A stretch of DNA of 37,651 bases. It comes from Alphaproteobacteria bacterium. GTDB lineage: Bacteria; Pseudomonadota; Alphaproteobacteria; Reyranellales; Reyranellaceae. The stretch is from NCBI GenBank assembly GCA_947474005.1, contig CANJHI010000034.1, positions 1 to 37,651 on the forward strand, read 5' to 3'. This document shows positions 12,186 to 37,651 of this stretch, piece by piece. The position numbers were made by a program, and so were the translations under genes. Position 1 is the first letter of the stretch. Each line of letters starts with the position of its first letter. The notes under the pieces were generated by a model. It had not been told where the DNA came from. It made no database searches and saw only the letters and a program-made list of their open reading frames with translations.

Positions 12186-12275
12186 GGACAGGTGGCCGAG
12201 CGGTTTAAGGCACACGCTTGGAAAGCGTGCGTGGTGTAACAGCCACCGCGGGTTCGAATCCCGCCCTGTCCGCCA
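12186..12275 (+). tRNA. tRNA-Ser (anticodon GGA)
   Basis: A 90-nt cloverleaf with acceptor stem GGACAGG/CCTGTCC, discriminator G and encoded CCA. The anticodon arm is CACGC-TTGGAAA-GCGTG with GGA at 12220-12222, a long serine-type variable arm follows, and the T arm carries GGTTCGAATCC. It reads UCC/UCU serine codons. I saw no duplicated tRNA 3' end downstream, so there is no sign of an integrated element at this site. Confidence 0.97.
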
Positions 12276-26581: not shown

Positions 26582-27445
26582 TCAGGACGGCACGATGAAG
26601 GGCTTCGCCGCGGCATCGTAGTCCGCGTAGCCCAGCGTCGCGCGGAGTTCCGCCGGCGGCAGCGCGCTCTTTGCCTCCGCATCGCCCGCGACCAGCGCTG
26701 CGAGGCCCGCCTTCATCCCCGCGGTCGCGGGAGAAAGCATGCCCGTCGGATAGGTGCCGATCTTGAAGCCCAATGCTGCCGCCTCAGTCTGTGACGGTGT
26801 CGCCCGCGGCGCCCCCGGCGACAGCACGGCGAACGACGGCCGTCCCCCCGCCGCCGCAACGGCGCGACGGATCTCGCCATCATCGGCGGGAGAGTCGAGG
26901 AACAGGATGTCGGCGCCCTCCTTCACGTACATTTCGATCCGCGCCACCGCCTCGTCGATACCCTGGGTCGGCCGGCAATCGGTGCGCGCCAGGACCAGGA
27001 TGCCGGACTCCTTGGCGGCCTCGACCGCAGCACGGATCTTCATCCGCGCTTCCTCGCGCGGCAGGCAGGGCTTGCCTGCGGCCGTGAGCGCGCGCGGCGT
27101 GATCTTGTCCTCGATCAGGACGGCCGCCGCCCCGGCACGGCCATAGGCCCGCACCGTTCGCTGCACGTTCATGGGATTGCCGTAGCCGTGATCGCCATCG
27201 GCCAGCACCAGCATCTGCGGTGCCGCCGCATGAACCATGTTGAAGGAATCGAACATCTCGCCGAACGAGATCAGGTCGAGGTCGGGTCCACCCAACCGGC
27301 TGGCCGCGACGCAGGAGCCGGAGAGAAACGCCGTCTTGAACCCGGCACCGGCGGCCAGCTTGGCGCTCAGCCCGTCCCACACGGCGGGCATCACGACGAG
27401 GCCGGGCTCGGCCAGCAGGGCACGCAGACGATCGGGGCTATTCAT
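26582..27445 (-). CDS. Isocitrate lyase/PEP mutase superfamily protein
   Basis: The 287-residue TIM-barrel protein has the metal-binding segment DGDHGYGNPMNVQRT (Asp83/Asp85), VLIEDK at 110-114 and LARTDC at 152-157, all typical of the superfamily. The usual active-site loop K(K/R)CGH is altered to KPCLP at 125-129, so the Gly-His of lyase and mutase members is missing. It may be an oxaloacetate-decarboxylase-like or hydrolytic member with another substrate. ATG 27445 is used; the longer frame has no domain features. It follows the TctC gene by 28 bp and is probably co-transcribed, hinting at uptake and cleavage of a carboxylate. Confidence 0.85.
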   Translation of the reverse strand: MNSPDRLRALLAEPGLVVMPAVWDGLSAKLAAGAGFKTAFLSGSCVAASRLGGPDLDLISFGEMFDSFNMVHAAAPQMLVLADGDHGYGNPMNVQRTVRAYGRAGAAAVLIEDKITPRALTAAGKPCLPREEARMKIRAAVEAAKESGILVLARTDCRPTQGIDEAVARIEMYVKEGADILFLDSPADDGEIRRAVAAAGGRPSFAVLSPGAPRATPSQTEAAALGFKIGTYPTGMLSPATAGMKAGLAALVAGDAEAKSALPPAELRATLGYADYDAAAKPFIVPS

Positions 27446-27473
27446 GACGGCATCCTCGAGTGTGTGTTGAGAG

Positions 27474-28442
27474 CTAGTTCGACGGCTTGATGCCGGCGTC
27501 CTTGATGACCTTACCCCATTTCGGAATGTCACCGGCAATCGCGGCCTTGGTCTCCGCCGCCGTGCTGCCGACGATGTCGAGACCCATGATGGCGAATTTC
27601 TTCGCCATATCAGGATCGGCCAGCACCTTCAGCGACTCGGCACGGACCTTGTCGAGAATGGGCTGAGGCGTGCCGACCGGCGCCAGCAAGGCAAACCACG
27701 ACGTCGCCTCGAAGCCGGGGAAGCCCGCCTCCACGACCGTCGGCAGGTCCGGCGCATTGGGCGAACGCTTGAGCGAGGTGACGCCGATGCCGCGCACGCG
27801 GCCGTCGCGCACCATCGGCATCGCCGCACCGGCATTCTGGATGCCGACGGCGACGACGCCGCTCATCACGTCGGTGAGGTTGGCGCCGCGATAGGGGATG
27901 TGCTCCATCTTGATGCCGGCCAGGACGCAGAAAAGCTCGCCCGCGATGTGCTGCGGCGTGCCGACGCCGGGCGTGCCGTAGGAGAGCTTGCCGGGATTGG
28001 CCTTGGCATAGGCGATCAGGTCGGCCATCGACTTGATGGGCAGGTCGTTGTTGACTACGAAGACGGAAGGCATCGACAAAGAGGTCGAGATCGCCGCGAA
28101 ATCGCGGACCGGATCGAAGGGCAGCATCTGCAGGCTGGGCAGGATGGTGATGGCGGCATTGCCCGACCACATCAGCGTGTAGCCGTCGGGGGCAGCCTTG
28201 GCGACGCGGTCGACGCCGATGGCGCCCGAGTTGCCGGCGATGTTCTCGACAATGACGGGCTGGCCCCAGGCCTCGCTGAATTTTTGCGCGAATATGCGGG
28301 CGGTGACATCGGTGGCGCTGCCGGCCGTGAAGCCCACGACCAGCTTGACGGGCTTTTCCGGCCAATTGGTCTGCGCCGCGAGCGGCGAGGCCAGGCCCAA
28401 GGCGAGCAGGAACGCGGCGGCGGACCGAACGATCGGATGCAT
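27474..28442 (-). CDS. Tripartite tricarboxylate transporter substrate-binding protein (TctC/Bug family)
   Basis: The 322-residue protein begins with a Sec signal (MHPIVRSAAAFLLALGLASP, cleavage near LAAQ) and then the Bug family opening WPEKPVKLVVGFTAGSATD. Further marks are ENIAGNSGAIGVDRVAKA, GTPGVGTPQHIAGE and MEHIPYRG. Such proteins bind carboxylates in the periplasm. No tctA/tctB membrane genes are nearby, a common situation for this expanded family. A GGAGGAAG ribosome site supports ATG 28442. The PEP-mutase-like gene follows. Confidence 0.93.
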   Translation of the reverse strand: MHPIVRSAAAFLLALGLASPLAAQTNWPEKPVKLVVGFTAGSATDVTARIFAQKFSEAWGQPVIVENIAGNSGAIGVDRVAKAAPDGYTLMWSGNAAITILPSLQMLPFDPVRDFAAISTSLSMPSVFVVNNDLPIKSMADLIAYAKANPGKLSYGTPGVGTPQHIAGELFCVLAGIKMEHIPYRGANLTDVMSGVVAVGIQNAGAAMPMVRDGRVRGIGVTSLKRSPNAPDLPTVVEAGFPGFEATSWFALLAPVGTPQPILDKVRAESLKVLADPDMAKKFAIMGLDIVGSTAAETKAAIAGDIPKWGKVIKDAGIKPSN

Positions 28443-28485
28443 GGCTTCCTCCGGGAAGGCGATCTTCGTCGCCGTTTGCCGGAGG

Positions 28486-29034
28486 CTATGGGATTTGAGG
28501 GCCTGGCCGCAACCTCGAAGCCGTGCCGCTTTCGCGGGAGCGGAATTCGAGTTCGCGCGCGATCCTGTCGGCGATCTCGCCCGGCGCGCCGCCGACATCG
28601 ACGACGATCGCGCGTTCGTCGGGCGTCGGTTCCTGAAGCGTCGCGAACTGGCTGTCCAGCAGGGCAGTCGGCATGAAGTGTTCGTGACGGGCGGCCATGC
28701 GCCTGGCGATGAGGTCAGGCGATCCTTTGAGATAGACCAGCGCCACTTCGACCCGATCGCCGATGATGATGTCGCGATAGGACCGTTTTAGAGCCGAGCA
28801 GGTGACGACGCCGGACTCGCCTTGCGTTCGCCAGACGTCGATTTCCTGTGCGATCTTCTGCAACCAGGGTAGCCGATCGGAGTCAGTGAGCGGCGTGCCG
28901 CCGCCCATCTTCTCGACGTTCTCTTTGGGGTGCAGGTCATCGCCCTCGCGATAGCGCCAGCCGAGCCGGGCAGCGAGCAGCGCCGAGACCGTGGTCTTGC
29001 CGCATCCCGAGACGCCCATGACGACAACGATCAC
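28486..29034 (-). CDS. Gluconokinase
   Basis: This small P-loop kinase of 182 residues has GVSGCGKT at 7-14, REGDDLHPKENVEKMGGGTP, LTDSDRLPWL, TCSALKRSYRD and RRMAARHEHFMP, the complete pattern of GntK-type gluconokinases. It phosphorylates gluconate to 6-phosphogluconate with ATP. I chose GTG 29034 because GGGAAAGGA precedes it and the family begins two to six residues before the P-loop; ATG 29019 is the alternative. The longer frame is not supported. It diverges from the LLM gene at 29160. Because FGD in the same region makes 6-phosphogluconolactone, both feed the same sugar-phosphate pool; this link is inference. Confidence 0.9.
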   Translation of the reverse strand: MIVVVMGVSGCGKTTVSALLAARLGWRYREGDDLHPKENVEKMGGGTPLTDSDRLPWLQKIAQEIDVWRTQGESGVVTCSALKRSYRDIIIGDRVEVALVYLKGSPDLIARRMAARHEHFMPTALLDSQFATLQEPTPDERAIVVDVGGAPGEIADRIARELEFRSRESGTASRLRPGPQIP

Positions 29035-29159
29035 CGTCTTTTTTCCTTTCCCGTTCACCCCAGCCGGATCGCATTGCGGGACGGGGCAGCTTACCCGGGC
29101 AACCCCCGGTGCTAGGCTCACGGCCCGCGAGAAATCCGCATTCATCACCGAGCAGACAA

Positions 29160-30230
29160 GTGCTGTTAGAAACTCTTCTGCCCCTCGGCAAGGTCGATCC
29201 TGGCCTTCGCGCGCCGGAGGTGCCGTTCGACCTCGACAGCATCGGCGAGAACGCACGGCTGCTGGAAGAGATCGGCTACGACGGCCTGGTCGTCGAGGAG
29301 ACCAAGGACGATCCGTTCATCGTCATGGCGCTGGCGGCCCAGGCGACACGGACACTGAAGCTCGGCACCTCGGTCGCCATCGCCTTTCCGCGCAGCCCCA
29401 CCGTGACGGCGCTCAGCGCCTGGACGGTCCAGAAACTGTCGCGCGGCCGGTTCACCCTGGGCCTCGGCACGCAGGTGAAGGCGCACATCGAACGCCGCTA
29501 CGGCATGCCCTGGACGCCGGCGGGACCATGGATGCGCGAGTATGTCCACGCTGTGCGGGCGGTGTGGAACAATTGGCAGAATGGCACACCGCTCGACGTC
29601 AAGGGTGAGCACTACAACATCAATCTGATGGTGCCGCTGTTCAATCCCGGCCCGATCGAGCATCCGCACATTCCAATCCAGATTGCGGCAGTCAACACGG
29701 TGATGTGCCAGGTCGCCGGCGAAGTGGCCGACGGCATCCGCCCGCACCCGGTCTGCACCCCCTCCTACATCGAGCAGGTGATGATGCCGGCGGTCCGCGC
29801 CGGTGCGGCCAAGTCCGGTCGCTCGCTAAGGGATTTCCAGATCGGCATAAAGCCGCTGGTCGCGACGGCTGCCACCGAGGCCGAGCTCGCCTCCAAGGTG
29901 CGCGACGTGCGGGCGCGCGTCGCCTTCTACGCCTCGACGCCGCAGTATCGCGCCGCCTTCGACCATCTCGGCCTCGGCGATCTCGCCGACCGGCTGAAAC
30001 CGCTGTCGCGCGCCCAGCGCTGGGAGGAAATGCCGCAGCACATCTCCGATGACGTGCTGGAAGCCTTTGCCACCATCGGCACCTACGATACGATCGCGCG
30101 CAAGCTCTGCGATCGCTTCGGTCATGTGGTTACCCATTGCGAGTTCTCGATCGCGGTCAAGAACGACGCCGACCGGGAAATGCTGCGCAGCATCGCCAAA
30201 GACATTCAATCCGATGGAGCCAAGTCATGA
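29160..30230 (+). CDS. LLM oxidoreductase resembling TIGR03617 (predicted F420-dependent)
   Basis: The 356-residue luciferase-like TIM barrel has EEIGYDGLVVEETKDDPFI, the LGTSVAIAFPRSP strand, GRFTLGLGTQVKAHIERRYG and WNNWQNGTPLDVKGEHYN. These strongly recall the TIGR03617 subfamily, which is named as probably F420-dependent and best known from mycobacteria. It would transfer hydride between F420 (or FMN) and an unknown substrate. The start is uncertain: GTG 29160 fits the domain boundary, and GTG 29109 is in frame upstream. Its TGA overlaps the ATG of the next LLM gene by four bases. Confidence 0.85.
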   Translation: MLLETLLPLGKVDPGLRAPEVPFDLDSIGENARLLEEIGYDGLVVEETKDDPFIVMALAAQATRTLKLGTSVAIAFPRSPTVTALSAWTVQKLSRGRFTLGLGTQVKAHIERRYGMPWTPAGPWMREYVHAVRAVWNNWQNGTPLDVKGEHYNINLMVPLFNPGPIEHPHIPIQIAAVNTVMCQVAGEVADGIRPHPVCTPSYIEQVMMPAVRAGAAKSGRSLRDFQIGIKPLVATAATEAELASKVRDVRARVAFYASTPQYRAAFDHLGLGDLADRLKPLSRAQRWEEMPQHISDDVLEAFATIGTYDTIARKLCDRFGHVVTHCEFSIAVKNDADREMLRSIAKDIQSDGAKS

Positions 30231-31087
30231 AACTGGGACGCCTGGGAGTCTGGTACTCGACGGACAAGCTGAACGCAGCGCAACTCGCCGACATGATGCG
30301 AGTCGTCGAGGGCGCCGGCTATTCGGCGTTCTGGTATCCCGAGTCGCGCGGCTACGAATCGATGTCGCTGGCGGCCTATCTGCTGTCGAAGAGCAGCAAG
30401 CTGGTCGTCGGCAGTTCGATCGCCAACATCTACGCCCGCGACTCCTTCACCGCCCAGCGGGCCATGGTGTCGCTGAACAACTTTTACGGCGGCCGTTTCA
30501 TCCTGGGCCTGGGCGTCAGCCATATCCCGATGGTCGAAGGCCTGCGCGGCCATCGCTACGACAAGCCACTCGGTGCCATGCGCGCCTATCTCGACGGCAT
30601 CCACAAGGGCCTGCCCGCCGGCGAGGATGCGCCTGTGATGGTGGCGGCACTCGGGCCGAAGATGCTGGCGCTCAGCGCCGAGAAATCGATGGGCGCCGTG
30701 CCCTACAACGTGACGCCTGCGCACACGGCCAAGGCCGCCGCCATTCTCGGACCGAAGAAGTCCCTGGCCGTCGAGCAGAAGGTCACGCTGGAAACCGATC
30801 CCGTGCGCGCCCGCGCGCTCGGTCGCAAGGAGCTCTCGCGCTACATGGTGCTGCCGAACTATCGCAACAACTGGCTGCGCGAAGGTTTCAGCGAGGCCGA
30901 ACTGGCCGACGGCGGCAGCGACCGCTTCATTGACTCCATGGTCCTCTGGGGCGACGCCGCCACCATCAAGAAAGGCCTGCGGGCGCATTTCGAGGCAGGC
31001 GCCACCCACGTCTGCCTGCAACCCGTCCACGACGACGGAGACTTCGCCGCCCGCGACCGCATGCTGGCGGCGCTCGCCGACACCTGA
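30227..31087 (+). CDS. LLM oxidoreductase resembling TIGR03620 (predicted F420-dependent)
   Basis: The 286-residue LLM protein starts MKLGRLGVWYSTDKLNAAQL and carries GYSAFWYPESRGYE, the strand LVVGSSIANIYARD, and GGRFILGLGVSHIPMVEGLRG. The pattern is that of the TIGR03620 group of probable F420-dependent oxidoreductases. The start is fixed by ATGA overlap with the previous gene. It is the second of three LLM genes on the plus strand and ends 14 bp before the third. Substrate unknown; cofactor F420 is inferred from family and from cofE in the same region. Confidence 0.87.
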   Translation: MKLGRLGVWYSTDKLNAAQLADMMRVVEGAGYSAFWYPESRGYESMSLAAYLLSKSSKLVVGSSIANIYARDSFTAQRAMVSLNNFYGGRFILGLGVSHIPMVEGLRGHRYDKPLGAMRAYLDGIHKGLPAGEDAPVMVAALGPKMLALSAEKSMGAVPYNVTPAHTAKAAAILGPKKSLAVEQKVTLETDPVRARALGRKELSRYMVLPNYRNNWLREGFSEAELADGGSDRFIDSMVLWGDAATIKKGLRAHFEAGATHVCLQPVHDDGDFAARDRMLAALADT

Positions 31088-31101
31088 GACCGGAGAGAAA
31101 A

Positions 31102-32169
31102 ATGGAATTCGGCATTGCCCTGCCCACGGCGGCAGACTCCTGGAAGCACGTGCAGCGGGCCGAGGAACTGGGATTCAGCCACGCCTGGTTCTACGACACC
31201 CAGATGCTGAGCGCCGATTGCTTCGTCGCCATGGGCGCCGCTGCCGTCAAAACGAGCCGCATCCGTCTCGGTACCGGCGTGCTGGTGCCGTCCAACCGAA
31301 TCGCGCCGGTCACCGCCAATGCGCTGGCCTCGCTCAACAGCCTGGCGCCCGGCCGCATCGACTTCGGTGTCGGCACCGGCTTCACGGCGCGGCGCGCCAT
31401 GGGCTTCGGCGCCATCAAGATCAAGGACATGGAGACCTACATCCATCAGGTCTACGGCCTGCTCGCTGGCAAGACCGTCGACTTCGAGATGGAAGGCCAG
31501 AGCCGCAAGATCCGCTTCCTCAATCCCGAGCTCGATCTCTTCAACACGCGCGATCCGATCGCGCTCCACCTCTCGGCCTTCGGGCCGCGGACCCGCGCGC
31601 TGACGGCACGGCTGAAGGCCGGCTGGATCGACTTCGTCGGCAACGTCGAGGCGGGCGTCCTCGAGGTCGTGGCGATGCGCGAGGACTGGGGCAAGGCCGG
31701 CCACGCAATGGGCGATCTGAAAGCCACAGCCTTTGCGCTGGGCTGCGTGCTGCAGGATGGCGAACCCGCGGATTCCGAGCGCGCCATGGCACAGGCGGGA
31801 CCGCGCGCCGCCGTAATGCTGCACCGCGCTGCCGACGAAGCGATCATGAACCTGAAGGCGACACAGGCCGTGCTGTCGAACCGGCCGGAGATCGATGGCT
31901 ACGTCGCCCTGGCACGTACCTACGAGCCCAAGGATGCGCCCTACCTGGAAAACCACCGCGGCCACCTGATGTTCGTGAAGCCCGCGGAGAAGAAGTTCGT
32001 GACCGCAGACCTGATCCGCGCCACCTCGTTCACCGCAAGCGAAGGCGAGATCAAGCAGCGCATCGAAGCGCTGCGCGGTGCCGGGTACACCCAGTTCACG
32101 ATCCAGCTCGTGCCGGGCCAGGAAGCGGCGCTCGCCGACTGGGCCCGCATCGCCAAGGCCTTCGCCTAA
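31102..32169 (+). CDS. LLM-class oxidoreductase
   Basis: The 355-residue luciferase-like protein reads MEFGIALPTAADSWKHVQRA at the start, GFSHAWFYDTQMLSADCF, then RLGTGVLVPSNRIAP and RIDFGVGTGFTARRAMGFG. These are the canonical strands of F420- or FMN-binding LLM enzymes such as 5,10-methylenetetrahydromethanopterin-reductase-like proteins. The C-terminal region is longer than in its neighbours. GGAGAGAAAA precedes the ATG. Its TAA overlaps the TAG of the convergent LLM gene, so the two arms of the cluster meet tail to tail with a four-base overlap. Confidence 0.87.
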   Translation: MEFGIALPTAADSWKHVQRAEELGFSHAWFYDTQMLSADCFVAMGAAAVKTSRIRLGTGVLVPSNRIAPVTANALASLNSLAPGRIDFGVGTGFTARRAMGFGAIKIKDMETYIHQVYGLLAGKTVDFEMEGQSRKIRFLNPELDLFNTRDPIALHLSAFGPRTRALTARLKAGWIDFVGNVEAGVLEVVAMREDWGKAGHAMGDLKATAFALGCVLQDGEPADSERAMAQAGPRAAVMLHRAADEAIMNLKATQAVLSNRPEIDGYVALARTYEPKDAPYLENHRGHLMFVKPAEKKFVTADLIRATSFTASEGEIKQRIEALRGAGYTQFTIQLVPGQEAALADWARIAKAFA

Positions 32170-33044
32170 CTGAAGGGGCGAATGACCTTCTCACCGAAGC
32201 GCCCGAGACTCTCCTCGAGATCGCGCATGAAAGGGGTGGACGGCAGTACGATACGGCCGATGCCCTGCGCCGCACGTTCCTTGATGGCCGCTTCCGCATC
32301 CTTGCCCGAGCCAGGCAGAAGATCAGGACAGCCGGCCAGCATCTCGATCGCCGCGGGATCGCGGCCCGCCGCCTCGGCGGCGCGACGCGCGATGTCGATC
32401 AGGGGCATGGTATCGGCAGGCCGGCCGATCGACGGGAAGAAGCCGTTGCCGAGACGGCCGGCGCGCCGGGCTGCTGCTTCGGAGTGGCCGCCGACGATGA
32501 TCGGCACGCTGCCGGCCACCGGCTTGGGGTTGCAGCTGACTTCGTTGAATTTCACGAATTCACCGGCATAGCTCGCGCCATCGGCCGCCCACAGCGCCCG
32601 CATGGCCGCGATATATTCGTCGGCACGCTTGCCGCGCCTCTCGAACGGCACGCCGAGCGCCTCGAACTCCTCTTTCAGCCAGCCGACGCCGATGCCCAGC
32701 TCGATGCGCCCGCCGCTCAGATGGTCGAGCGTCGCCACCTGCTTGGCGAGCACCAGCGGATTGCGCTGCGGCAGGATGAGCACACCGGTCATGAAGCGCA
32801 GGCGCGTCGTGACCGCCGCGACAGAGGCCATCCAGATCAGGGGATCGGGGATCGATGCGGTGCGATCACCCGGCAGCCGGCCACTGGCCGCGTAAGGATA
32901 GGTCGAGCTGTAGGTGTCGGGCAGGACGACATGATCGACGGCAAAGACCGAATCGAAGCCGGCGGCCTCGGCCAGCCGCACCAGCCGATGCGCGCTGGCA
33001 AGGTCTGGGCAGGTGTTGTTGCCGAAGTGCAGGGCAAATTTCAT
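32166..33044 (-). CDS. LLM oxidoreductase resembling TIGR03619 (predicted F420-dependent)
   Basis: The 292-residue protein starts MKFALHFGNNTCPDLASAHR and has GFDSVFAVDHVVLPD, FMTGVLILPQRNPLVLAKQV, LDHLSGGRIELGIGVGW and VPIIVGGHSEAAARRAG. These features fit the TIGR03619-type LLM group, with the DH pair near residue 37 where FGD has its catalytic His. ATG 33044 overlaps the stop of the upstream LLM gene (ATGA). It is the last gene of the minus-strand arm. Substrate unknown. Confidence 0.87.
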   Translation of the reverse strand: MKFALHFGNNTCPDLASAHRLVRLAEAAGFDSVFAVDHVVLPDTYSSTYPYAASGRLPGDRTASIPDPLIWMASVAAVTTRLRFMTGVLILPQRNPLVLAKQVATLDHLSGGRIELGIGVGWLKEEFEALGVPFERRGKRADEYIAAMRALWAADGASYAGEFVKFNEVSCNPKPVAGSVPIIVGGHSEAAARRAGRLGNGFFPSIGRPADTMPLIDIARRAAEAAGRDPAAIEMLAGCPDLLPGSGKDAEAAIKERAAQGIGRIVLPSTPFMRDLEESLGRFGEKVIRPFS

Positions 33045-33940
33045 CACAGCAGGTCCGCGACGGCGGCGCGGTAGCGCGTGATCGCCGTCAGGTGGTCGTC
33101 GTAGCTCTTGCCTGCGATGCGCTTGTGGTGGGCGCTCACGTAAGAGGTGTGGGCGTTGACGTGGGTTACGCCGGCCTTTTTCCAGAAGCTGATTTCCTTG
33201 CGCCAATCCGCCTCGGCGCCGATGCCGGGCGAGACCCAGACCTCCAGGCCCACGAATGCTGGATCGCGTCCGGCGGCGCGGGTCATCGTGCGCAGCTTGT
33301 CGAAGGCTTTCAGCGCCTCGTCCCCCGCCGGATAGGCGAGTGGCATGAAGCCGTCGCCATATTGCGCGGCCCGCCGGAACGTCGCCTCGGCGTGGCCGCC
33401 GAACCAGATCGGCACGCGGCCGGATTTCGGGCGCGGATTGATGCCGCCGTCGTCGAGGCGGTGGAATTCACCCTTGAACGTGATGTGTGGCTCGGCCCAC
33501 AGCGCCTGCATGAAGCGCACCTGCTCCTCGGACCGCTTGCCGCGCGTCTTGAAATCCTCACCCAAGCCCTGGAACTCGATCTCGTTCCAGCCGACTCCGA
33601 CGCCGAGGCGGAAGCGCCCCTCGCTGAGTTCGTCAAGGCAAGCCGCCTGCTTGGCCACCAGCGCCGCCTGGCGCTGTGCCAGGATCAGCACGCCGGCAGC
33701 GAAGCCGACCTTCTTGGTGACGCCGGCCAGGAAGGCGAACAGCACGAAAGGATCGTGATAGGCCGTGGCGGTGGTGCCCATCCGCCGCCCGCCATGGTCG
33801 ACGTTGGGGTTGCCGCCCAGCACGTGATCGGGCGCCACGAGATAGTCGTAACCCAGTCCTTCGGCCGCCTGCGCATAGTCGCGCAAGACACTAGGGCCCG
33901 TGCCGATGTCACCGACCGGCAGAGATGCACCGAGTTTCAT
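33044..33940 (-). CDS. LLM oxidoreductase resembling TIGR03619 (predicted F420-dependent)
   Basis: The 298-residue protein begins MKLGASLPVGDIGTGPSVLR. Its features include GLGYDYLVAPDHVLGGNP, FAAGVLILAQRQAALVAKQ, GRFRLGVGVGWNEIEFQGLG and VPIWFGGHAEATFRRAAQYG. It clearly belongs to the same subgroup as the gene after it, from which it could have arisen by duplication, although they are well diverged. It starts 7 bp after the stop of the larger LLM gene and is probably in one operon with it and the hydrolase. Confidence 0.88.
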   Translation of the reverse strand: MKLGASLPVGDIGTGPSVLRDYAQAAEGLGYDYLVAPDHVLGGNPNVDHGGRRMGTTATAYHDPFVLFAFLAGVTKKVGFAAGVLILAQRQAALVAKQAACLDELSEGRFRLGVGVGWNEIEFQGLGEDFKTRGKRSEEQVRFMQALWAEPHITFKGEFHRLDDGGINPRPKSGRVPIWFGGHAEATFRRAAQYGDGFMPLAYPAGDEALKAFDKLRTMTRAAGRDPAFVGLEVWVSPGIGAEADWRKEISFWKKAGVTHVNAHTSYVSAHHKRIAGKSYDDHLTAITRYRAAVADLL

Positions 33941-33947
33941 GGTGTCC

Positions 33948-35192
33948 TTACTCCGCCGCGGCGGCCTTACGGGGTTTCAGGTCTGTCGAATACTTGAGGT
34001 GGACTGGCGCATTGGCCTCGAACGGGCTCTTGAGGTCGAGGCTTTTGGCGATCTCGCGGATCGCCGGGAACACTTCCTGGCCGATCAGCTTGATGCAGGT
34101 GAGCGAGTCAGCCTGGCTGACACGGCCATCGTTGCCCCACAGTGCCAGGATGCCCGGCCGCGTCTCCTCCAGGATGCGCTTCAGCTTGGCAACCACCGTC
34201 TTGGGCGTGCCGGCGATGATGCGGAGATCAGCCATCTGCTGCTCGAAGCTGGTCTCGCCGCGCGGATTGTTGGCGCGGCCGGAGGCGAACTCGACGAAGG
34301 CACGGCGGGCGGTCGGCGAGCCGTAGCCCGACGGCGTGCTCCACACCGGATGCGCAAGGCCAGTGAATTCGCCCTGCATCCAGCGGAACTGCCGGGCGTT
34401 CTCGATCGCCTTCTCCTCGTTGTCCGAGACATGGACCTGGATCAGGTAGCCGCGATTCTCGGGCCCACCGACGTAGCCGACATCGGCCGCCACGCTGTCG
34501 TAGAGCTCCCAGATCTTCTTGGTCTGCTCGATCGAAGTGTTGAGCGCGATGTAGGGATAGCGCTGCTGCGCGGCCCACACGATCGTCTCCTTGCTGATCA
34601 CGCCCGGAATCCAGACGCGAGGGTAGGGCTTCTGCAGCGGCACCGCCCATGGATTTACCACGCGGTGCTGATAGTGATTGCCTTCGAAGCGAAACGGACC
34701 GGTCTGCGTCCACGCCCTGGTGACCAGATCGTGCGCCTCCTCGAAGCGCTCGCGGTTGAACGCCGGATTGACGCCAGTGGCGAGCTGCTCCTGGCCGCCG
34801 CCGCGCACGAAGCCGGACACCAGCCGGCCCTTGGAGATCATGTCGATCATCGCCAGCTCTTCGGCCAGACGGATCGGGTTTTCCGCCAGCGGCAGCGGAT
34901 TGCCCAGCATGACGATCTTCACCTTCTTGGTCATGCCGGCCAGAAGGGCTGCAAAGATGTTGGCCTTGGCTTGCATGCAGAACGGCGCATTGTGGTGCTC
35001 GTTCAACATGATGCCGTCGACGCCGACCTCCTCGGCCAGCATGTATTGCTCGATGTAGTTGTTGTAGAGCCTGGAGCCTTCGACCGGATCGAAATGCTTG
35101 TTGGAGAGCATCAGCGCCGTGGCGCCGAAATCGCGGCCGGCCTGCTCCGGGTAGGCCGACATCGGTTGCTCGGTGAAATACATCAGGTGCAT
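33948..35192 (-). CDS. Large LLM-class monooxygenase-like protein
   Basis: At 414 residues this is longer than the other LLM proteins here and belongs to a different branch. It opens MHLMYFTEQPMSAYP and contains GVDGIMLNEHHNAPFCMQA, VKIVMLGNPLPLAENPIRLA, GRLVSGFVRGGGQEQ and a C-terminal GQEVFPAIREIAKSL. The NEHH motif is typical of FMN-dependent, luciferase-type monooxygenases, so this enzyme may use FMNH2 rather than F420. The start at 35192 fits the domain and lies 5 bp after the hydrolase stop. A monooxygenase-hydrolase pair suggests oxidation of a substrate followed by processing of the product. Confidence 0.87.
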   Translation of the reverse strand: MHLMYFTEQPMSAYPEQAGRDFGATALMLSNKHFDPVEGSRLYNNYIEQYMLAEEVGVDGIMLNEHHNAPFCMQAKANIFAALLAGMTKKVKIVMLGNPLPLAENPIRLAEELAMIDMISKGRLVSGFVRGGGQEQLATGVNPAFNRERFEEAHDLVTRAWTQTGPFRFEGNHYQHRVVNPWAVPLQKPYPRVWIPGVISKETIVWAAQQRYPYIALNTSIEQTKKIWELYDSVAADVGYVGGPENRGYLIQVHVSDNEEKAIENARQFRWMQGEFTGLAHPVWSTPSGYGSPTARRAFVEFASGRANNPRGETSFEQQMADLRIIAGTPKTVVAKLKRILEETRPGILALWGNDGRVSQADSLTCIKLIGQEVFPAIREIAKSLDLKSPFEANAPVHLKYSTDLKPRKAAAAE

Positions 35193-35197
35193 GGCAA

Positions 35198-35995
35198 CTA
35201 CTCCCGACCGATGAAGTCGACGATCAGCTTGGCGAGGGCGTCGGGCTGTTCCATGTCGACGCAATGGCCGCTCGCCTTGACGATTTCCAGCTTCGCGTTG
35301 GGCAGGGCCTCGACGTAGCGCGCGGCGGCACTCTGCGGCACCACCCGGTCGTCGTCGCCCCAGACCACCAGCGACGGCGCACGCACCGCGCCCAGCAGAT
35401 GCGGCAAGGTCTGGCTGTACATGTAGGGCTTCCAGGCGATGCGGAAGCTCATCTCGCGGCAGATGTCCCACATCTCGAGCTGGTCGATCGACGGCTCGGC
35501 GCCATAGACGCGGTCGAACGCTTTCTGGTCGTGGAAGCCGGCGCGGGCGTAGTCGATATAGCCGGTGATCGCGAGGTCGAGGATATCACCCTGCGGCGGC
35601 TTGATGCCCATGGCGCCGACCAGGACCAGGTGGGAAAGATCGTCCGGCGCCATGCTGGCCATTTCCGCCGCGATCCAGCCGCCGAAACCCAGGCCGACGA
35701 GGGCGGCGTCCTTGATCTTCAGGTCGCTCAAGAGACCGCGATGGATCACAGCAATATCGCGCACGCCGCGCATCCAGGCCGGCCGCTCCGACCGGCTGTA
35801 GCCGGGGTGATGCGGCACCAGCACATCGTAGTGCGCCGCCAGGGCGTCATAGAAAGGCAACTGATCCAGCGTGCCCGTCTCATGGTGCAGCACCATGACC
35901 GACCGCGACTTTTTGCCGGCCGGTCCGGCGCGCCTCAGATGCAACTTGATGCCGCCTGCTTCGACCGTAGAGTCGGTCCAGTCCACTCCCGCCAT
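35198..35995 (-). CDS. Alpha/beta-hydrolase-fold protein lacking the nucleophile serine
   Basis: The 265-residue protein has the full alpha/beta hydrolase layout, with an acid segment WGDDDRVVP (Asp214-216) and a late His244 in ASGHCVD. The nucleophile elbow, however, reads GLGFGG at 101-106, so Gly103 replaces the catalytic Ser of GxSxG. The oxyanion strand is VLHHETGT instead of HGxxG. It may therefore be a non-hydrolytic member (lyase, isomerase or binding protein), or use water activated by other residues. It is the first gene of the minus-strand arm, just upstream of the large LLM gene. Confidence 0.85.
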   Translation of the reverse strand: MAGVDWTDSTVEAGGIKLHLRRAGPAGKKSRSVMVLHHETGTLDQLPFYDALAAHYDVLVPHHPGYSRSERPAWMRGVRDIAVIHRGLLSDLKIKDAALVGLGFGGWIAAEMASMAPDDLSHLVLVGAMGIKPPQGDILDLAITGYIDYARAGFHDQKAFDRVYGAEPSIDQLEMWDICREMSFRIAWKPYMYSQTLPHLLGAVRAPSLVVWGDDDRVVPQSAAARYVEALPNAKLEIVKASGHCVDMEQPDALAKLIVDFIGRE

Positions 35996-36163
35996 TCCGG
36001 GTTTCCTTCCCTATTGGCGAGGATCGTTGCAACCGGGAACAGCAGAGTCAAACTTTCGACTGGCGATGCAACGTTCCGATGACGTCCGAGAGCCCGTCAA
36101 GTGGTTGTTCGCCGGTTGCCGGTCGATTAAGACTCCACTCTCGCCACAGAGAAAGATTCAACC
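35996..36163. promoter_or_regulatory. Divergent promoter region between the LLM/hydrolase arm and fgd-cofE
   Basis: The 168 bp between two divergent starts must hold the promoters of both transcription units. I see no confident -35/-10 boxes or clear operator; short motifs such as GTTGCAAC and GCAACGTT occur, but without convincing symmetry. No regulator gene lies nearby. Confidence 0.45.
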
Positions 36164-37171
36164 GTGCTCAAGCTCGGATACAAGGCGTCGGCCGAACAAT
36201 TCGCGCCGTCAAAGTTGCTCGACTTCGCATGCCTGGCCGAAACCGTCGGGTTCGAGTCGGTGTTCGTCAGCGATCACTTCCAGCCCTGGAAGCACATCGA
36301 TGGCCACGCGCCCTACTCGCTCGCCTGGCTGGGCGCGCTGGGCGCCCGCACGCAGCGGGTCGCGATCGGCACCAGCGTGCTCACCCCCACCTTCCGCTAT
36401 CATCCCTCGATCGTGGCCCAGGCCTTCGGCACGCTGGGCGCAATGTTCCCGGGACGGGTGATCCTGGGCATCGGCACCGGTGAATCGCTGAACGAGGTGC
36501 CCTCCACCGGCGCCCCCTGGCCCGACTTCAAGGAGCGCTTCGCGCGGCTGCGCGAGGCGGTGACACTGATCCGCACCCTGTGGCGCGGGGAGCGAATCAG
36601 CTTCGAGGGCGAATACTACAAGACCGAAAAGGCCACCATCTACGACCGACCTGACGTCGAGGTTCCGATCTACGTGGCTGCGGCGGGCGCGCTGGTCGCG
36701 CGCTACGCCGGTCGCTCGGGCGACGGCTTCATCTGCACCAGCGGCAAGAAGTGGGACCTCTACACCGACACCCTGCTGCCCAAGGTCGCCGAGGGCATCG
36801 CCGCCGCCGTTGAGCCCAAGAAACAGCCCTATGACCACATGATCGAGGTCAAGGTCTCCTTCGACACCGATGCCGACCGTGCACTTCAGGACACACGGCA
36901 CTGGGCGGCGCTGGCGCTGACGCCGGAGGAGAAGATGACGGTCGAGGATCCCGTCGAGATGCAGCGGCTGGCCGATGCCCTGCCGCTCGAGCGCGCGGCG
37001 TCACGCTGGATCGTCTCGAACGATCCCGACGAGCATGTCGAGAAGATCGGCGCCTACGTCGGTCTCGGATTCCACCACCTCGTGTTCCACGCCCCCGGCC
37101 CCGATCAGGAGCGGTTCCTGAAGCTCTACGGCGAGCAAGTGCTGCCGCGCCTGCGCAAGAAGTTCGGATGA
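36164..37171 (+). CDS. fgd: F420-dependent glucose-6-phosphate dehydrogenase homologue
   Basis: The 335-residue protein starts at GTG 36164 with [14 protein letters not shown], the opening of mycobacterial FGD1. The FGD active-site elements are kept: SDHFQPW (His38, Trp42; His40 and Trp44 in FGD1), GTGESLNE (Glu107; Glu109), and the three phosphate ligands as Lys195 (TSGK), Lys257 (EEKMTV) and Arg281 (SRWIV), matching Lys198, Lys259 and Arg283. It should oxidise glucose-6-phosphate to 6-phosphogluconolactone and reduce F420. Related F420 sugar-phosphate or hydroxymycolic-acid dehydrogenases are alternatives, but the kept phosphate site favours a sugar phosphate. Its stop overlaps cofE by four bases. 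Confidence 0.9.
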
Positions 37172-37651
37172 GCCGTACCACTGCTTTGGAGATCCTGGCG
37201 GTCCCCGGCATTCCCTTGATCGAGCCGGGTGACGATCTGGCGGCGCTGATCGCCCAAGGACTCTCACGCGCCAAACTTGAGCCGCGCGAGAACGACGTGA
37301 TCGTGATCGCCCAGAAGGTCGTCTCCAAGGCCGAAGGCCGCAGCGTCGATCTTGCGACAGTGGTTCCCTCGGCGCGCGCCATCGAGCTCGCGACGGAAGT
37401 CCAGAAGGATCCGCGACTGGTCGAACTGATCCTGTCGGAATCCGTGCGGGTGGTGCGGTCCAGGCCCAATGTCCTGATCGTCGAACACCGGCTGGGCTTC
37501 GTCATGGCCAATGCCGGCGTTGATCAATCCAATGTCGCAGCACCTGATGGCCCGCAGTTCGCCCTGCTGCTGCCGGTCGATCCCGACGGCAGCGCCGCTG
37601 CATTGCGCGAGCGGCTCGCCACCCTGTGCGGCGCCTCGCCCGCCGTCGTCA
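37168..37651 (+). CDS. cofE: Coenzyme F420-0:L-glutamate ligase, 5' part
   Basis: The frame opens at ATG 37168 and is still open at the window end (161 residues visible). It reads [54 protein letters not shown] and [20 protein letters not shown], the characteristic run of CofE/FbiB ligases, which add gamma-linked glutamate to F420-0 using GTP. Whether it ends as a stand-alone CofE or carries an FbiB-type nitroreductase domain lies outside the window. The four-base overlap with the FGD gene couples cofactor maturation to cofactor reduction. Confidence 0.93.

What the first reader, a model, noticed from the sequence alone, without database searches (positions are those of the whole stretch)
28486..37651. 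F420 redox island in a proteobacterium: cofE, FGD and six further LLM oxidoreductases
Sequence shows cofE overlapping an FGD homologue, with six more LLM genes, a gluconokinase and a hydrolase-fold gene packed around them. FGD and several LLM subfamilies (TIGR03617, 03619, 03620) are best known from actinobacteria. F420 genes have been reported in some proteobacteria, but a sugar-phosphate-driven F420H2 supply linked to a set of possible F420H2 users would be a little-described module. The housekeeping genes in the window argue that the host is an alphaproteobacterium.
Basis: partly seen in the sequence, partly recalled or inferred. Interest (0 to 1): 0.85.

Follow-up and report, generated by a model that had tools for sequence, protein, structure and literature searches.

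The report
Glucose-fed F420 island in Reyranella

Summary
[quoted passage not shown] 490 bits, cut-off 420) and 161 codons of cofE. The host is a Reyranella MAG. The end of contig C35 holds the rest of cofE, then cofD and cofC, with fbiC and 6-phosphogluconate dehydrogenase (gnd) further in; that C34 and C35 abut is inferred.

Fno passes its cut-off in 0 of 19 Reyranella genomes and 0 of 50 FGD-bearing genomes (9 shared); all 31 listed proteobacterial cofE plasmids carry Fno, none FGD. FGD precedes cofE where Fno does in 16 of those 31. One relative (G026) shows neither enzyme. (2) zwf was not found in the window's genome, in 3 of 14 FGD-bearing congeners, or in 16 of 49 FGD-bearing genomes, two of them isolates; there FGD is the only glucose-6-phosphate dehydrogenase found. 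The pgl lactonase is missing too, which counts against a complete pathway.

A second island on C109 is most likely a stray contig. Not every LLM looks F420-type. New variant of a known kind; nothing tested at the bench.

The parts
28486..29256 (-). gntK, gluconokinase (gluconate to 6-phosphogluconate); the true start is probably further in
   Evidence: TIGR01313 186.3 bits, cut-off 113.75. A gntK relative lies in 15 of 80 FGD loci; in G009 and G013 it adjoins FGD.
29109..30230 (+). LLM 1, TIGR03617 family
   Evidence: 373.1 bits, cut-off 278.15; nearest solved structures are F420-dependent Mer
30137..31087 (+). LLM 2, TIGR03620 family
   Evidence: 277 bits, cut-off 219.8; the only solved matches are four Mer sequences, at weak E-values; a relative in 48 of 80 FGD loci
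31102..32169 (+). LLM 3, no family over cut-off
   Evidence: PF00296 97.8 bits; best NCBIfam TIGR03842 85.3 against 295.45; nearest solved structures are F420 Mer
32166..33206 (-). LLM 4, TIGR03619 family; cofactor uncertain
   Evidence: 266.9 bits, cut-off 166.9; solved matches mixed, a luciferase-like monooxygenase first, an FMNH2 monooxygenase second, Mer close behind
33044..33940 (-). LLM 5, TIGR03619 family; cofactor uncertain
   Evidence: 246.6 bits, cut-off 166.9; solved matches mixed, FMNH2-dependent dimethylsulfone monooxygenase first
33948..35471 (-). LLM 6, long ORF; more likely an FMN-type monooxygenase
   Evidence: no NCBIfam family over cut-off; the best 13 of 16 solved matches are luciferases and monooxygenases
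35198..35995 (-). alpha/beta hydrolase, divergent from FGD
   Evidence: PF00561 70.3 bits; no NCBIfam family at 1e-20; nearest solved are BphD-type hydrolases; in 17 of 80 FGD loci
36164..37171 (+). [quoted passage not shown]
   Evidence: TIGR03554 489.7 bits, cut-off 420; best PDB matches are the FGDs of Rhodococcus and M. tuberculosis; phosphate-binding Lys198, Lys259, Arg283 and positions 40, 44 and 109 (roles of these three recalled) unchanged in 80 of 80 loci
37168..37650 (+). cofE, F420-0:gamma-glutamyl ligase, first 161 codons; cut by the contig end
   Evidence: PF01996 153.1 bits, profile 4-145; profile 157-218 lies at the right end of contig C35. Against the 257-residue CofE of C109 about 11 residues are missing between the two pieces (my count).

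Best explanation
The island is an F420 module that would reduce its own cofactor with glucose-6-phosphate: FGD, predicted to be co-transcribed with cofE, cofD and cofC, stands in front of cofE where many other proteobacteria keep the NADPH-dependent Fno. Shown: genes for making F420 (fbiC, cofC, cofD, cofE in two pieces) lie in the window and on contig C35; FGD passes the equivalog cut-off with its substrate residues intact; Fno is not found in the window's genome nor over cut-off in any FGD-bearing genome searched; zwf and pgl are not found in the window's genome; its only 6-phosphogluconate dehydrogenases are the one on C35 and the one on C109. Inferred: C34 and C35 abut inside cofE; FGD turns glucose-6-phosphate and F420 into 6-phosphogluconolactone and F420H2; the lactone opens by itself or through an unidentified lactonase; Gnd carries 6-phosphogluconate, also supplied by gluconokinase, on to ribulose-5-phosphate; F420H2 drives at least LLM 1-3 and some LLM genes on C35. 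In lineages that have lost zwf, FGD would be the only way from glucose-6-phosphate into the oxidative pentose phosphate pathway.
For: C35: cofE C-part, cofD (300 bits, cut-off 257) and cofC (129/105) with 4-base overlaps; fbiC (1130/1018, two CX3CX2C motifs); gnd TIGR00872 381/297. gnd-LLM-fbiC-cofC-cofD-cofE-FGD-gntK stand on one contig within about 12 kb in G009 and G013; L088 has gntK, LLM 1-5, FGD-cofE-cofD-cofC and the TRAP genes on one contig, without LLM 6 and the hydrolase. FGD and cofE are both present in 15 of 19 Reyranella genomes and both absent in the other 4. Of 51 plasmid records with cofE, 50 are listed and 31 are proteobacterial; the same 31 hold Fno and none holds FGD at E 1e-60. 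zwf absent in G000, G009, G013, G018, all FGD-bearing, and in 16 of 49. gnd in 19 of 19 Reyranella genomes; in G000 only on C35 and C109. Rhodococcus jostii has gnd-fgd-pgi side by side, and that FGD is active on G6P and needs F420 (PMC5352752, abstract and passages). FGD-profile (LLM) matches: 16-48 in F420+ against 5-15 in F420- congeners.
Against: pgl is absent wherever zwf is absent in the 31 genomes, so no lactonase is known for FGD's product. G000 is 93.8% complete, so one missing gene has about a 6% chance of being a gap. The genome with the closest FGD (L086, 98%) has zwf. Gnd persists in the 4 congeners without FGD or zwf, so it need not serve FGD. The either-or rule is not complete: G026 has cofD and cofE but neither FGD nor Fno over cut-off, its cofE cut at a contig end; one Rhodococcus opacus plasmid has both; the plasmid hosts' chromosomes were not searched for FGD. 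Of the 31 plasmids Fno stands just before cofE in 16, just after in 12, elsewhere in 3. cofE of the window is split over two contigs. CofE lacks the FbiB reductase domain, so how dehydro-F420 is reduced is open (recalled). LLM 6, and perhaps 4 and 5, look FMN-type. No F420 was measured.
Confidence: 0.7

Rival explanations
1. FGD only charges F420. The loss of zwf and pgl means that these strains have given up oxidative pentose phosphate flux from glucose-6-phosphate, and Gnd serves gluconate taken in through gluconokinase.
For: pgl is lost with zwf. Four congeners without FGD and zwf keep Gnd. gntK lies in the island.
Against: FGD's known product is 6-phosphogluconolactone (PMC5352752), which opens without an enzyme (general knowledge) to Gnd's substrate. 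gnd lies near FGD in Rhodococcus and in Reyranella islands.
Confidence: 0.35
2. The missing zwf, pgl and Fno are gaps or misbinning in metagenome-assembled genomes, and the organism has the ordinary set as well.
For: G000 has 316 contigs and probably holds a stray contig. zwf is present in 11 of 15 FGD-bearing Reyranella genomes and in the genome with the closest FGD. Completeness of the 49 genomes is not told.
Against: Completeness predicts 0.97 missing zwf among the 15 FGD-bearing Reyranella genomes; 4 were seen (P about 0.009, treating genomes as independent). Two records not marked as MAGs, Caldovatus sediminis and Belnapia mucosa, also lack it. Gaps cannot explain 0 of 50 for Fno.
Confidence: 0.2
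3. The LLM enzymes of the island are FMN-dependent catabolic monooxygenases that merely lie beside F420 genes; FGD serves enzymes elsewhere in the genome.
For: LLM 6 is nearest to FMN luciferases and LLM 5 to an FMNH2 monooxygenase. Islands vary in their LLM content.
Against: LLM 1, 2 and 3 are nearest to F420 enzymes. FGD-profile (LLM) matches are more numerous in each of the 15 F420+ than in each of the 4 F420- Reyranella genomes, though closely so at the edge (16 against 15).
Confidence: 0.15
4. The window's genome really carries two F420 islands (C34/C35 and C109) as paralogues.
For: Both are in the bin; they are 84-88% identical and largely in the same order.
Against: C109 is 99.0% identical over 17.3 kb to a contig of another bin (L092/G031), while the window's pheT region is 84% identical to that bin over 2.6 kb (with a further 0.2 kb at 90%). 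That is what a stray contig gives; a recent transfer is the alternative.
Confidence: 0.08

Closest known systems
fgd-gnd-pgi group of Rhodococcus jostii RHA1 plasmid pRHL3 (Rh-FGD1) and F420/pentose-phosphate genes of other Rhodococcus plasmids
   Same: FGD beside a NAD-type 6-phosphogluconate dehydrogenase; pgl between fbiC (annotated cofH) and cofC in pRZP2; fgd near tkt, tal, glpX and pgi in pDK1; FGD activity shown for Rh-FGD1 (PMC5352752)
   Different: Actinobacteria; in the three stretches read fgd is not the first gene of cofE-cofD-cofC; pgl is present in pRZP2
Proteobacterial Fno-type F420 loci (Aromatoleum EbN1 plasmid 2, Croceicoccus marinus, Paraburkholderia PGU19, Sinorhizobium meliloti pSymA, Leisingera, Paracoccus)
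   Same: Same biosynthesis genes; Fno-cofE-cofD-cofC order in Aromatoleum, Croceicoccus and Paraburkholderia; an LLM gene attached in Leisingera, Paracoccus and Croceicoccus
   Different: F420 reductase is npdG/Fno, with no FGD on the record (31 of 31 plasmids); in Leisingera and Paracoccus npdG follows cofE and cofG and cofH are separate
Mycobacterial FGD system
   Same: FGD as the sole cytoplasmic F420 reductase, Fno not used (review PMC8498797, passages)
   Different: Mycobacterium smegmatis also has an NADP-dependent glucose-6-phosphate dehydrogenase (PMC4518329, passages); here zwf is missing in some genomes
Alphaproteobacterial Fgd predicted by Ney et al. 2017 (as cited in PMC8498797; the paper itself is not held)
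   Same: Fgd in F420-making alphaproteobacteria
   Different: There 'in addition to Fno'; here no FGD-bearing alphaproteobacterial genome searched has Fno over cut-off

Membership tests
[quoted passage not shown]
   489.7 bits against 420; also L088, Caldovatus, Belnapia and Bradyrhizobium, 487-496 bits
[quoted passage not shown] tuberculosis; named in PMC5352752) | tested here: met
   Present in the window and in 80 of 80 loci. Position 260, His in M. tuberculosis, is Met in 74 of 80 and never His.
[quoted passage not shown]
   needs an enzyme assay
F420 biosynthesis pathway | fbiC (or cofG and cofH), cofC, cofD, cofE in one genome | tested here: met
   fbiC, cofC and cofD over cut-off on C35; cofE in two pieces at the ends of C34 and C35
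F420 biosynthesis pathway | A reductase for dehydro-F420 (FbiB C-terminal domain or a stand-alone enzyme; recalled) | tested here: inconclusive
   CofE of C109 is 257 residues with the ligase domain alone; a stand-alone enzyme was not sought
Fno/npdG (TIGR01915) | A gene over cut-off in the genome | tested here: not met
   No match in G000; 0 of 19 Reyranella over cut-off. The same profile passes for 5 of 5 proteobacterial Fno proteins tried.
F420-dependent LLM subfamilies | Score over an F420 LLM subfamily cut-off | tested here: inconclusive
   Met for 4 of 6 island genes (TIGR03617, 03620, 03619 twice), not for LLM 3 and LLM 6. The family names rest on annotation, not on assays.
Oxidative pentose phosphate pathway, complete | G6P dehydrogenase, lactonase and 6-phosphogluconate dehydrogenase | tested here: not met
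   FGD and gnd present; zwf and pgl not found in G000. Other lactonase families were not searched.

The most novel reading that the evidence does not exclude
In a line of alphaproteobacteria F420 has become the obligatory acceptor for glucose-6-phosphate oxidation. zwf and Fno are gone, FGD, gluconokinase and Gnd travel in one island with F420 biosynthesis, and the oxidative pentose phosphate pathway starts with F420H2 instead of NADPH.
Probability: 0.3. Interest if true: 0.75.

Novelty: new variant of a known kind. Interest (0 to 1): 0.5.

Why it matters
The 2021 review says that no F420-dependent reductase or F420-reducing dehydrogenase had been investigated experimentally in bacteria outside actinobacteria, and that experimental work is needed to establish the role of F420 there (PMC8498797, section 23). 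An either-or pattern between FGD and Fno would be a simple genomic marker for how a proteobacterium charges F420. The zwf-less Caldovatus sediminis and Belnapia mucosa would make the question of F420 in central metabolism directly testable in culture.

Tried and rejected
Two F420 islands in one genome: looked exciting, but C109 is 99.0% identical to another bin's contig against 84% for the pheT region, so most likely a stray contig; rejected as a claim. The hydrolase as the missing lactonase: its nearest solved relatives are BphD-type hydrolases, and it was not found in the island stretches of G009 and G013; not supported. One replacement of Fno by FGD or two: in a cofE+cofD tree of loci that I chose, FGD loci form two sets (26 and 4 rows in the careful tree, each fully supported) with two changes between Fno and FGD, but one clade is not rejected (p-AU 0.278); undecided. 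Actinobacterial origin of FGD: not tested; the protein search listed only its best 120, all near copies. F420 variant (3PG type) from CofC residues: the two papers listed were not used for it; dropped. No paper in the held library has both Reyranella and F420. PMC5623714 was looked at in passages and not used. Ney et al. 2017 is not held. Structure prediction and fold search were not used.

Rows left out: 50 of the 80 FGD loci (40 Reyranella-like, 10 others, chosen by me) were sent to the zwf search (limit 50 per call) and 49 were held. For Fno 50 of 80 were sent and searched, L142 in place of the L147 that is not held. The LLM counts are matches to the FGD profile, with at most 48 candidates scored per genome. 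In the careful tree 6 of 47 rows were dropped as half-empty or distant.
Full report
What is there. The window is the whole contig C34 (37651 bases) of a 5.68 Mb, 316-contig genome, 93.8% complete. Its right end reads: gntK(-), LLM 1, 2, 3 (+), LLM 4, 5, 6 (-), alpha/beta hydrolase(-), FGD(+), cofE(+, cut). FGD scores 489.7 bits against a cut-off of 420 and aligns nearly end to end with the solved FGDs of Rhodococcus and M. tuberculosis.

The other F420 genes. The genome holds two cofC and two cofD, on C35 and C109. The right end of contig C35, read on its minus strand, begins with the last 85 residues of a cofE, followed by cofD, cofC and a TRAP transporter (DctP, DctQ, DctM); in the other direction lie two caprolactamase-like genes, fbiC, more LLM genes and gnd. 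The two cofE pieces do not overlap; against the 257-residue CofE of C109 about 11 residues are missing between them. In relatives FGD-cofE-cofD-cofC run without a break on one contig, including L088, which also has the window's gntK, LLM 1-5 and the TRAP genes but not LLM 6 and the hydrolase. I therefore infer that C34 and C35 abut. Each junction FGD/cofE, cofE/cofD and cofD/cofC is a 4-base overlap.

Host.

A false lead. C109 carries a second island, 84-88% identical to the window's, without the TRAP and caprolactamase-like genes. It is 99.0% identical over 17.3 kb to a contig of another bin, G031, while the window's pheT is 84% identical to G031 over 2.6 kb, with a further 0.2 kb at 90%. The simplest reading is a stray contig in this bin; a recent transfer is possible.

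Spread. A scan of named genomes found 381 stretches encoding a relative of FGD; the best 80 (Reyranella, Bradyrhizobium, Roseomonadaceae/Acetobacteraceae, Vineibacter and others) were kept. Of these 80, cofE lies near FGD in 79, cofD in 70, cofC in 67, fbiC in 51, an LLM 2 relative in 48, gntK in 15 and gnd in 15; many stretches are short, so these are lower bounds. In Reyranella there are two layouts: the window's, and one with cofD-cofC-fbiC followed by an inverted FGD and then cofE (G001, G002, G003, G016); G005 and G011 are mosaics.

FGD in place of Fno. In the set of 31 relatives Fno passes its cut-off in 2, G019 and G030; both have cofD and cofE without FGD, and Fno stands just before cofE. 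It passes in 0 of 19 Reyranella genomes (15 with FGD) and in 0 of 50 FGD-bearing genomes, 9 of them shared. A third relative with cofD and cofE but no FGD, G026 (93% complete, 7% contamination), has no Fno either; its cofE is cut at a contig end. In the plasmid collection 51 records hold cofE; of the 50 listed, 31 are proteobacterial, and the same 31 accessions hold Fno. FGD at E 1e-60 was found only in 17 records of Rhodococcus and Nocardia, one of which (R. opacus NZ_CP130956) also holds Fno, so the pattern is not general in actinobacteria. Fno stands just before cofE in 16 of the 31, just after in 12, elsewhere in 3 (from the positions). In Aromatoleum and Croceicoccus the order is a long gene annotated cofH (2.3 kb, fbiC-sized), npdG, cofE, cofD, cofC: there FGD's place is npdG's place. 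The two sides are sampled differently (whole genomes chosen by FGD; plasmids chosen by cofE, chromosomes unsearched), so the contrast is strong but not a random survey. On a tree of cofE and cofD, FGD loci form two supported sets; one origin is not excluded.

zwf. Among the 19 Reyranella genomes it is absent in 4 of 15 with FGD (G000, G009, G013, G018) and in all 4 without FGD; none of the 19 has zwf without FGD, though G023, outside the genus, does. It is absent in 16 of 49 FGD-bearing genomes, among them Caldovatus sediminis and Belnapia mucosa, whose records are not marked as MAGs, but present in the genome with the closest FGD, L086. gnd is in 19 of 19 Reyranella genomes; in the window's genome only C35 and C109 have it, while in G001, G002, G003, G011 and G016 a gnd adjoins zwf. 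pgl, 11 of 31, follows zwf (10 of the 11 zwf-bearing Reyranella genomes plus G023) and is absent from the four FGD-only genomes. This last result weakens the picture of a complete pathway.

The users. LLM 1-3 are nearest to F420 enzymes in the PDB, LLM 4 and 5 mixed, LLM 6 nearest to FMN luciferases. Matches to the FGD profile number 16-48 in the 15 F420+ and 5-15 in the 4 F420- Reyranella genomes; genomes are related, up to 48 candidates were scored per genome, and G017 is only 77% complete, so the rank probability of 0.0003 is optimistic.

Literature. The review PMC8498797 (passages, and section 23 in full) lists Fgd in alphaproteobacteria with a question mark and says they encode it 'in addition to Fno'. 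PMC5352752 (passages, parts of the abstract) notes that Rh-FGD1 is flanked by putative 6-phosphogluconate dehydrogenase and G6P isomerase genes and is strictly F420-dependent. PMC4518329 (passages) describes both kinds of G6P dehydrogenase side by side in Mycobacterium smegmatis. No paper in the held library has both Reyranella and F420.

Verdict. What is added is that FGD appears to replace Fno rather than to join it, stands in the place before cofE that Fno holds in half of the plasmids compared, and in some genomes is the only glucose-6-phosphate dehydrogenase found.

Noticed in passing
L016 (G000:C109:1-18010): Second F420 island in the bin, 99.0% identical over 17.3 kb to L092 of another bin; most likely a stray contig or a recent transfer.
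   Followed up: yes
L015:7631-14637 (G000:C35): TRAP transporter genes (DctP, DctQ, DctM) and two caprolactamase/hydantoinase-like genes sit between cofC and fbiC in the window's island and are absent from the copy on C109; distant relatives of the pair (about 31-37% identity) also lie near cofE in three loci of the other layout (L039, L044, L050).
   Followed up: partly
L038, L055 (G011) and L045, L052 (G005): Mosaic F420 loci: cofE and FGD of the window's layout, cofD-cofC-fbiC of the other layout; in G011 about 20 kb apart on one contig.
   Followed up: partly
G026:C211 (L054): A relative of the same class with cofE (cut at the contig end), cofD, cofC and fbiC but neither FGD nor Fno over cut-off: how it would reduce F420 is open.
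   Followed up: no
window 36164-37171, residue 258: The His260 position of M. tuberculosis FGD is Met in 74 of 80 alphaproteobacterial loci and never His; effect unknown.
   Followed up: no
19 Reyranella genomes: zwf was never found without FGD (0 of 19); the 4 genomes without FGD also lack zwf and pgl but keep gnd.
   Followed up: partly
window 26582-28598: PEP mutase-like and TctC-like genes next to gntK also lie beside the island in L088, L091 and L093.
   Followed up: no
window 12186-12275: tRNA-Ser (gga), an ordinary gene upstream of the island.
   Followed up: no
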